From: an uncultured Desulfuromonadales bacterium
GTDB taxonomy: Bacteria; Desulfobacterota; Desulfuromonadia; Desulfuromonadales; Geopsychrobacteraceae
Direction: 5' to 3'
Assembly: GCA_945787295.1 (NCBI GenBank)
Contig: CALZHQ010000070.1
Location: 1 to 24,477 of the forward strand
Length of the DNA: 24,477 bases
The notes below the pieces were generated by a model. The model had not been told where the DNA came from, searched no databases, and saw only the letters and a list, made by a program, of their open reading frames with translations. The position numbers and the translations under genes were made by a program. Below are positions 14,602 to 16,597 of this stretch, piece by piece. How positions within the stretch are numbered: the first letter of the stretch is position 1; every line of letters begins with the position of its first letter.

Positions 14602-16597
14602 ATGCAAGCCAACCACTACCCCTTCAGCGCCATTATCGGCCAGGACGCCATGAAGGCCGCCCTGCTGCTCAACGCTGTCGATCCAACTATCGGCGGGGTG
14701 TTGATCCGGGGCCAGAAGGGGACCGGGAAATCGACGGCGGCGCGGGCGTTGGCCGCTTTGTTGCCGGACATCGAGGTGGTCAAGGATTGCCCTTATCATT
14801 GCGACCCGGCCGATCTCAAGAAGATGCATGAGGGCTGCCGCGAACGACTTGAGATCAATGGCCAGCTACCGAGCGAATTCCGGCCGATGCCGGTTGTCGA
14901 ACTGCCGCTGTCGGCTTCCGAAGACCGGGTGGTGGGGACAGTGCAGCTGGAGCACGCGCTGAAAACCGGTCAGCGACGTTACGAACCGGGCCTCTTGGCC
15001 GCGGCCAACCGGGGCATTCTCTACGTTGATGAGGTCAACCTGCTGGAGGATCACTTGGTCGACCTGCTGCTCGACGTGGCCGCCTCCGGCATTAACCGGG
15101 TCGAACGGGAAGGGTTGTGCATCACCCACCCGTCACGTTTTATGCTGGTCGGCACCATGAACCCGGAAGAGGGCGAGCTGCGCCCGCAGTTTCTCGATCG
15201 GTTCGGACTGGTGGTGCATGTCGAAGGGCTCAGCGATCCGCGGCTACGCCGCCAGCTGATCGAAAACCGGCTCGATATTTTGAACAGAATCCTGAAGCTT
15301 TTACTGCTGGCTGGCAGCGGCAGGAGCAGTTCCTTGCCGGGCAGGTGCAGCAGGCCCGCCAGCAGTTGCCAGAGGTGACCATTCCGGATGTCGCCTACGA
15401 TCTGGCAGTGGAGCTGGCGATCGAACTGCAGGTGCATGGGCATCGGGCCGATATCGCCCTGTTGAAGGTTGCCCGGGCGCTGGCCGCGATGTTGGAGAAG
15501 GAAGCCGTCAGCGTTGCCGAAATCCACGAAGCCGCTTACTTCGTGCTGCCGCATCGGCTGCCAGGTGGAGCACTGCTGGGAGTCGAGATGGCCCGCAAAA
15601 CCCTCGATGATGCCCTGGCCAAGATGGTCGATGGGAAATCGAAGCAGGTCAACCTGGATGATCAGGACCCTCTCGACGATCTCGATTTTATGGTGGTTGA
15701 TTACGAGTTTCCCGGCTCCGCTGCCGCAGGAACCATGCTGTTCCAGACGCTTAAAAAAAAACTTCAGAGCGGATCGTCGACCTCGATGAGCAGCTCTGCC
15801 TCACTTCGGTCTCTCTCGACCAGCTGAAGCTCTCCCGCAACGCCTCCGGTCGCCGGCGCAGCAGCGTTGCCCGCTCCCGCTCCGGGCGCCATATCCGCAG
15901 TCTGCCGTTACAGAAGCATCAGCGTGAGACAGCTCTCGACCTGCCGGCCAGTTTACGTGCTAATCTGGTGCGTGGTGGCGGGCCGCTTGATTTTTGTGAT
16001 CTGCGCCGCAAGGTATTTCAACATCGACAAAAGGCGCTGATCGTCTTTGTCATCGATGCTTCGGAATCGATGGGAGAGGGCACCTTGGAGCGGATGAAGG
16101 CGGCCAAGGGGGCCGTCCTAGGCTTGTTGACCGGCGCCTACCAGAACCGCGATCAGGTCGCGTTGGTCGCCTTCCGTGAGCAGCAGGCTACGGTGCTGCT
16201 CCGGCCAACCTCAAGCGTTCTGCTGGCCCAGCAACAGCTACGCAAACTGCCGCTCGGTGGCGCCACGCCCTTTGCCGACGGCCTCTGGCAGGCCTGGCAG
16301 CTGATCCGCATTGAGCGCCAGAAACAACCGAACCTGCAGCCGCTATTGGTGATTGTCTCCGACGGTGAAGCGAATGTACCGCTGGTTTCAGGCGCGGATA
16401 TTTTTCCGGAGCTGCACAGCATTGCCCGACAGATCGCCCAGGACCGGATAAGCGCCATGGTGATCGACAGTCGAGCCGGAGTTGGCAATATTCGCCTGCA
16501 ACAATTGGCGCAGCAGTTGAGTGGGAGCTACCAGCAGATCCGTGATCTGCATGCCGGTAAATTGATCGAAGCGGTGTGGGCTGCCGAAGAGCGTTGA
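14602..16597 (+). CDS. chlD: Fused ChlI-ChlD-type chelatase subunit (AAA+ and VWA), read in three frames
   Basis: AAA+ ATPase plus VWA protein of the Mg/Co-chelatase family; with CobN-type proteins such subunits insert metal into tetrapyrroles. The ATG at 14602 has AAGGA at 7 nt. Frame 1 (14602 to about 15272) encodes the ATPase core: Walker A GQKGTGKST (K43) and Walker B GILYVDEVN (D143, E144). A -1 shift near 15272 is needed to continue (RYFEQNPEAFTAGW...) in frame 2, which ends at a TGA at 15825-15827. A second -1 shift at the A9 run 15753-15761 leads to frame 3, through an Arg-rich linker to the VWA domain with MIDAS residues DASES, GGATPFADG and VSDGEA. The second shift has the features of programmed frameshifting and would give a ChlI-sized product and a full-length ChlD-like product. 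The first has no slip site and may be a mutation or assembly indel. No cobN is in the window. Confidence 0.85.
15750..15798 (+). promoter_or_regulatory. Candidate programmed -1 ribosomal frameshift site (A9 run with downstream hairpin)
   Basis: Zero-frame codons are CTT AAA AAA AAA CTT; slipping back one base gives ACT TCA GAG CGG and opens the frame to the VWA domain. The A run is 15753-15761. A hairpin follows: CAGAGC (15765-15770) with GCTCTG (15793-15798), and inside it ATCG (15773-15776) with CGAT (15784-15787). An AGGA lies about 21 nt upstream, farther than the usual stimulatory distance. The spacer of 3 nt to the stem is short. Transcriptional slippage adding one A would give the same frame. 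Confidence 0.6.

What the first reader, a model, noticed from the sequence alone, without database searches (positions are those of the whole stretch)
15745..15800. Candidate programmed -1 frameshift joining ChlI-like and ChlD-like parts of one gene
The zero frame reads CTT AAA AAA AAA CTT over an A9 run and stops 21 codons after the run; a -1 slip reads ACT TCA GAG CGG and opens the linker and the VWA domain. A hairpin with stem CAGAGC/GCTCTG and a nested ATCG/CGAT follows at once. The run sits at the boundary between the ATPase half and the VWA half, so one gene could yield a short ChlI-type subunit and a long ChlD-type subunit. Production of both cobalt-chelatase subunits from a single chlD gene by programmed frameshifting has been described for other bacteria; the exact signal here (A9 plus this hairpin) is what I see in the sequence.
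Basis: partly seen in the sequence, partly recalled or inferred. Interest (0 to 1): 0.75.

Follow-up and report, generated by a model that had tools for sequence, protein, structure and literature searches.

The report
Known chlD frameshift site, damaged copy
A bacterial metal-chelatase-like gene carries a run of nine A's that relatives have kept and that probably lets one gene make a short and a long protein, a trick already described for this gene family; the copy read here is also interrupted further upstream, and most examined relatives lack the partner protein needed for a cobalt chelatase.

Summary
The A9 run (15753-15761) joins a ChlI-like ATPase half to a ChlD-like VWA half in the -1 frame. 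In 34 of 34 examined split relatives (21 in the order, 13 elsewhere in the phylum) the junction lies on 9 or 10 uninterrupted A's; 0 of 26 continuous homologues have such a run (recounted in 63). So this is no one-off homopolymer error but the conserved shift site of the published fs-chlD family. Three corrections. It is a recent mutation or an assembly error. (2) The hairpin is real here but poorly kept in relatives, without covariation. (3) The cobalt-chelatase role is doubtful: 2 of 21 order genomes with the split gene have a CobN/ChlH match, 0 of the 5 nearest. Ribosomal and RNA-polymerase slippage cannot be told apart here. New member of a known kind; modest interest, mainly for the missing large subunit.

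The parts
14602..15378 (+). ORF with the gene's likely start: ChlI-like AAA+ ATPase (258 aa); homologous to relatives only up to about 15270, then an out-of-frame tail
   Evidence: Pfam PF01078/PF07728 and NCBIfam TIGR02442/TIGR02030 on 14602-15288; 91% identical to L001 over 226 residues
15271..15290 (+). second, window-specific frame break: two bases longer than four intact relatives
   Evidence: alignment with L001, L002, L004, L010; ATPase frame continuous to the A run in L001-L005; among the 120 homologues listed (of 7371) only the window's own protein is 258 aa long
15285..15827 (+). rest of the ATPase half (AAA lid) in frame 3, with the zero-frame stop at 15825-15827
   Evidence: PF17863 on 15288-15824
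15752..15754 (+). -1-frame stop TAA overlapping the start of the run; confines the shift to the run
   Evidence: -1 frame likewise opens inside the run in 12 of 21 order relatives and 8 of 13 phylum loci
15753..15761 (+). A9 shift site
   Evidence: A9 (29) or A10 (5) in 34 of 34 split relatives examined
15765..15798 (+). hairpin directly after the run (two stacked stems); lineage-local, role unproven
15755..16597 (+). VWA (ChlD-like) half in the -1 frame; first in-frame start codon is GTG 15968, 207 nt past the run as counted
   Evidence: PF13519/PF00092/PF05762 and TIGR02442 on 15764-16594

Best explanation
This is an fs-chlD gene: one gene in which -1 recoding at a conserved run of nine A's lets the cell make a short ChlI-like AAA+ subunit (no shift, stop soon after the run; mostly 380-440 aa in relatives) and a long ChlD-like AAA+/VWA subunit (shift inside the run). 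Shown by sequence: the run, the frame relation, their conservation in the order and phylum, and constraint on the -1 frame directly after the run, ahead of any in-frame start codon. Inferred: that both proteins are made, and that the slip is mainly ribosomal (tandem tRNA-Lys on A_AAA_AAA), as published reporter assays of family members were read. The window's copy carries an additional frame break upstream, from a recent mutation or an assembly error, so this sequence as read would not give either complete product.
For: 21 of 21 order relatives with both halves and 13 of 13 short-frame phylum loci with both halves are split in the -1 sense at A9 (17 and 12) or A10 (4 and 1); 0 of 26 continuous homologues have 9 or more A's near the junction, one has A8. 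The -1 frame is open only from inside the run in 12 of 21, 8 of 13 and the window. First 16 codons after the run, all pairs of 8 loci: pN/pS 0.41 in the -1 frame with no stop, 0.95 in the zero frame and 2.56 in the third frame, both with stops (pairs not independent). KKK within the last 70 aa in 115 of the 120 listed ATPase-half proteins. No second strong ChlI match in 21 of 21 order genomes with the split gene. Published E. coli reporters of this family: 63, 40 and 10% frameshifting with 11, 9 and 7 A's (PMC3711429, section read). Segments after the window's break are as constrained as in an intact relative (dN to L004 0.271 and 0.215 for the window, 0.279 and 0.210 for L001).
Against: No expression data. 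The window's own frame is broken before the run, and the window's genome is not held. The hairpin, a usual stimulator, is not conserved beyond the nearest relatives. The run length is also one at which bacterial RNA polymerase slips (PMC5009743 passages), so the ribosomal step is not established. Continuous homologues are common in the phylum and one lies in the same order, so the shift is not needed for the protein family as a whole.
Confidence: 0.86

Rival explanations
1. RNA-polymerase slippage on A9 (an extra A in part of the mRNA) rather than ribosomal slippage makes the long product.
For: All 34 split relatives examined keep an uninterrupted run of at least 9 A's; bacterial RNA polymerase slips with high efficiency on 9 A's or T's (PMC5009743 passages); no stimulator is conserved in the 8 close loci.
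Against: Published family members also shift at A7 (10%) and the shift site is described as A_AAA_AAR (PMC3711429; PMC5009743 section 18), and those authors speak of ribosomal frameshifting. Longer runs also favour ribosomal slippage, so the pattern does not separate the two.
Confidence: 0.35
2. The split at A9 is a simple homopolymer sequencing or assembly error in a continuous gene.
For: A9 is a classic error context, and the window carries another, non-homopolymer frame break.
Against: 34 of 34 split relatives from different genomes show the same split at the same place, with runs of 9 and of 10 and with frames whose stops lie around the run.
Confidence: 0.02
3. This particular copy is a pseudogene: the break near 15280 is real and the conserved shift signal is a relic.
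For: Two-base length difference outside a homopolymer. Weakly, another ORF in the window (23575-23835) looks truncated, by eye only.
Against: The coding sequence before and after the break shows no sign of relaxed selection, so decay would have to be very recent; an assembly error is about as likely.
Confidence: 0.45
4. The two halves are separately translated genes (translational coupling or internal initiation), with no recoding.
For: ATG, GTG or TTG codons occur further downstream in the VWA frame of every locus examined.
Against: The first in-frame start in the window is 207 nt past the run; over 21 loci it varies from 33 to 333 nt, and the stretch before it is constrained in the -1 frame.
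Confidence: 0.06

Closest known systems
fs-chlD / 'magnesium chelatase' recoding cluster (Antonov et al. 2013, PMC3711429; Antonov 2020, MBE msaa081, not held, known to me here only by its title and citations; Kuznetsov et al. 2022, PMC9227772)
   Same: Same domain order, same -1 direction, A-run between the two parts, one gene proposed to give small and medium subunits; a 9-A cassette shifted 40% in E. coli.
   Different: No Desulfuromonadales genus is among the six genera named for the 2013 cluster (the database and supplements of the 2022 paper were not seen, so they may hold some). Here the run has at least 9 A's in all 34 examined, the large subunit is mostly missing, and the window's copy has an extra break.
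'Stage 1' fs-chlD species without cobN/chlH (Spirochaeta thermophila, Brevefilum fermentans; Kuznetsov 2022, read)
   Same: fs-chlD without a large subunit; function unclear.
   Different: Here the same state is seen in 19 of 21 genomes with the split gene in one order.
dnaX recoding (E. coli ribosomal A_AAA_AAG; Thermus T9 transcriptional slippage), as in passages of PMC5009743
   Same: One gene, two subunits, slip site of Lys codons or a 9-base homopolymer. The review also mentions rarer dnaX genes in which the long product comes from the shift, the arrangement seen here.
   Different: In E. coli and Thermus dnaX the altered reading gives the short product; here it gives the long one. Different protein family.

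Membership tests
fs-chlD (programmed-frameshift chlD) | ChlI-like AAA+ half followed by ChlD-like VWA half, homologous to fused putative cobaltochelatase subunit | tested here: met
   TIGR02442 is the best NCBIfam match of all three pieces (each piece alone scores below the whole-protein cut-off); Pfam AAA, lid and VWA domains
fs-chlD (programmed-frameshift chlD) | -1 frame relation at the domain boundary, kept in relatives | tested here: met
   34 of 34 split relatives examined
fs-chlD (programmed-frameshift chlD) | A-rich slippery run at the junction | tested here: met
   A9 in the window; A9 (29) or A10 (5) in 34 relatives
fs-chlD (programmed-frameshift chlD) | downstream stimulatory RNA structure | tested here: inconclusive
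   hairpin in the window (z -2.09) and same fold in L001, similar in L002; median z over 22 loci -0.55; in 8 close loci 76% of cells pair, more than in any slid version (21-50%), but covariation is no better than shuffles
fs-chlD (programmed-frameshift chlD) | no separate chlI gene | tested here: met
   in relatives only: 21 of 21 order genomes with the split gene have no second strong match (next best E 2.8e-7); the window's genome is not held
fs-chlD (programmed-frameshift chlD) | open frame from the start codon to the shift site | tested here: not met
   frame break near 15271-15290 in the window; met in L001-L005
fs-chlD (programmed-frameshift chlD) | both products made in the cell | not testable with these tools
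   needs protein or reporter data
cobalt chelatase CobNST-type complex | large subunit CobN/ChlH in the same genome | tested here: inconclusive
   window's genome not held. Among relatives mostly not met: 0 of 5 nearest, 2 of 21 order genomes with the split gene, 9 of 34 over order and phylum against 79 of 106 with a continuous gene only; completeness of these genomes is not given

The most novel reading that the evidence does not exclude
In Desulfuromonadales and related groups the fs-chlD products form a stand-alone AAA+/VWA machine that works without any CobN/ChlH large subunit, for example as an ATP-driven activator of another metalloenzyme, and the conserved run of at least 9 A's fixes the short-to-long subunit ratio (possibly by RNA-polymerase as well as ribosomal slippage).
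Probability: 0.4. Interest if true: 0.55.

Novelty: new member of a known kind. Interest (0 to 1): 0.3.

Why it matters
It extends a published recoding family to an order in which the shift site is strictly kept while the supposed chelatase partner is mostly missing. That makes the function of the ChlI/ChlD pair without a large subunit, left open in print (PMC9227772), testable in an isolate such as Malonomonas rubra. It also warns against reading a cobalt-chelatase role from the gene name.

Tried and rejected
Homopolymer error at the A9: rejected by conservation in 34 of 34 split relatives examined. Hairpin as a conserved signal: in 8 close loci the window's structure pairs in 76% of cells (outer stem 81%, inner 71%), more than any of six slid versions (21-50%), as expected for a structure taken from one of the rows; covariation is no better than shuffles (431 of 500 as high); RNAalifold keeps only the outer stem, with no compensatory pair; over 22 loci 10 have z below -1 and 2 below -2. 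Gene neighbourhood as a clue to function: apart from the gene itself no ORF family recurs in more than 5 of 21 loci, and none looked like cobalamin synthesis (families judged by eye only). CbiK as substitute chelatase: 12 of 21 order genomes with the split gene have a match at E 0.001 or better, 11 over the cut-off; 7 of these span nearly the whole model, the others are short partial matches; suggestive only. Plasmid records: 38 with partial matches, none covering 80% of the query. A second programmed site near 15280: rejected, since relatives are continuous there. Structure prediction was not run, as it would not bear on the question.

Limits of the counts. Of the 28 order genomes with a match, 21 hold a readable split gene; G020 is continuous; G008 has its halves on different contigs and G082 lies at a contig edge (both uncounted as split); four (G056, G061, G070, G076) are weak matches (E 7e-6 to 3e-4) and were not counted. 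The 'continuous' genomes were taken from listed open frames of 600 aa or more. Two genomes with the split gene (G216, G348) also hold a continuous one, and their CobN/ChlH match lies near that one. Genomes carry no completeness values and many are MAGs, so absence of CobN is weak per genome; but G047 has the split gene on a contig of 4,125,859 bases, about its whole stated size, and shows no CobN/ChlH match. L017 and L028 have the same site sequence. The tree (60 rows, L028 dropped as too short) puts the window in a group of 21 rows, all split, with support 100/99 for the branch (midpoint root); the split label needs 3 changes on the whole tree, so single or repeated origin is undecided.

Full report
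What is there. The gene at 14602-16597 (+) encodes, in pieces, a ChlI-like AAA+ ATPase with its lid domain and a ChlD-like VWA domain (Pfam; NCBIfam, where TIGR02442, putative cobaltochelatase, is the best match of each piece). The A9 run at 15753-15761 separates the ATPase half (local zero frame, stop 15825-15827) from the VWA half (-1 frame, open 15755 to 16597). A -1-frame TAA at 15752-15754 overlaps the start of the run, so the change of frame must happen inside it.

The start codon at 14602 is not in the frame that reaches the A9. Frame 1 ends at 15378; homology passes to frame 3 near 15271-15290. Against L001, L002, L004 and L010 the window is two bases longer there, while L001-L005 keep one frame up to the A run. 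Among the 120 listed homologues of the ATPase half (of 7371 found), only the window's own protein is 258 aa long; 117 of the 120 have 380-440 aa. Sequence after the break is as constrained as in an intact relative: dN to L004 is 0.271 (middle segment) and 0.215 (VWA half) for the window, against 0.279 and 0.210 for L001; comparisons with L002 and L010 are similar. The break is therefore very recent or an assembly error; since relatives are continuous there, it is not a second programmed site.

Conservation of the A9. A search of 136 genomes of the order found 28 with a match to the VWA half. In 21 of them both halves can be read as a split gene, and all 21 are split in the -1 sense on A9 (17) or A10 (4). 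One genome (G020) has a continuous gene plus a separate ChlI-like gene; the other six were weak matches or cut by contig ends (see Tried and rejected). In a sample of 395 genomes of the phylum, 145 matched; 13 short-frame loci with both halves were all split in the -1 sense on A9 (12) or A10 (1), while 0 of 26 continuous homologues had 9 or more A's near the junction; one (L080) has A8. With each gene's own Lys codon usage, about 2.8 of 21 genes would be expected to read AAA AAA AAA at this place; 21 do. The rows are related, so this is a guide and not a probability. In the tree the window lies in a group of 21 rows, all split, with support 100/99.

Translation of the -1 frame from the run. 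Over 16 codons after the run in all pairs of 8 close loci, pN/pS is 0.41 in the -1 frame, 0.95 in the zero frame and 2.56 in the third; the -1 frame has no stops, the other two do. The first possible in-frame start in the window is GTG 15968, 207 nt past the run. Constraint ahead of any start codon points to a shift, not to internal initiation.

The hairpin. It is the minimum-energy structure of the window's sequence (z -2.09 with the run included; z -1.76 for the 60 nt after the run). The same fold is predicted for L001 and a similar one for L002; the inner stem is kept in L010, the outer stem could still form in L004 with one G-U pair, and L003, L005 and L014 break it. In 8 loci 76% of cells pair, more than in slid controls (21-50%), but covariation does not exceed shuffles. 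Across 22 loci the median z is -0.55. The 2016 review likewise says that structure potential in this family is strong but its sequence not strongly conserved (PMC5009743, section 18 read). It may help locally but is not the conserved signal.

Known or new. Programmed frameshifting in this gene was found and tested in 2013: 23 genes from six genera, three cassettes giving 63, 40 and 10% with 11, 9 and 7 A's in E. coli (PMC3711429; abstract, passages and one section read). Kuznetsov 2022 (PMC9227772; three of four parts read) describes fs-chlD across phyla and species with fs-chlD but no large subunit. A review of archaeal recoding repeats the 2013 case for archaea (PMC8211752, one passage). Antonov 2020 is not held and is cited from those papers. 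So the A9 here is a new member of a known kind. My searches of the paper library on this gene listed no paper on fs-chlD in Desulfuromonadales by title; I did not search for that order's name, and supplements were not seen.

Is it a cobalt chelatase? CobN/ChlH (PF02514) gave no match in the genomes of the five nearest relatives. In the order 2 of 21 genomes with the split gene have a match (G077, and an 87-position fragment in G013). Over order and phylum, 9 of 34 genomes with the split gene have one, against 79 of 106 with a continuous gene only (Fisher p about 1e-6, no correction for kinship or completeness; handles typed from outputs). Within the phylum sample alone it is 7 of 17, so the absence is strongest in the order. 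By rows printed, 1 of 34 split genes lies within 20 kb of a CobN/ChlH match against 49 of 93 continuous genes (unlisted rows are missing, and 17 of the 34 were entered as unlinked). In this lineage the split gene is thus mostly uncoupled from CobN; 12 of 21 order genomes with the split gene have a CbiK-type match, 7 of them over nearly the whole model. What the ChlI/ChlD pair does without a large subunit remains unknown; an AAA+/VWA activator of another metalloenzyme is my inference, without direct evidence.

Mechanism. Ribosomal -1 slippage on A_AAA_AAA is the published reading. The minimum of nine uninterrupted A's in all 34 examined fits RNA-polymerase slippage as well (review passages on 9-base runs). 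Nothing here separates them.

Noticed in passing
window 14526-14534: G9 run ending 67 bp before the chlD-like start codon (14602); the longest G run in the 130 bp upstream of the gene in five relatives is 2 to 4. Possibly a phase-variable or error-prone tract.
   Followed up: partly
window 5900-5908: A second A9 run lies in a small conserved ORF (5858-6085, 75 aa); the ORF is continuous and 92% identical to one in L001, so no frameshift is implied.
   Followed up: partly
window 23575-23835 (-): 86-aa ORF that looks, by eye, like the start of a class V aminotransferase, apparently truncated.
   Followed up: no
L109 (also L080; genome G346): A continuous chlD-like gene with an A8 run in the linker.
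   Followed up: partly
G314, G201, G360, G490, G160, G421: CobN/ChlH matches with one or two in-frame stop codons; possible split or recoded large-subunit genes.
   Followed up: no
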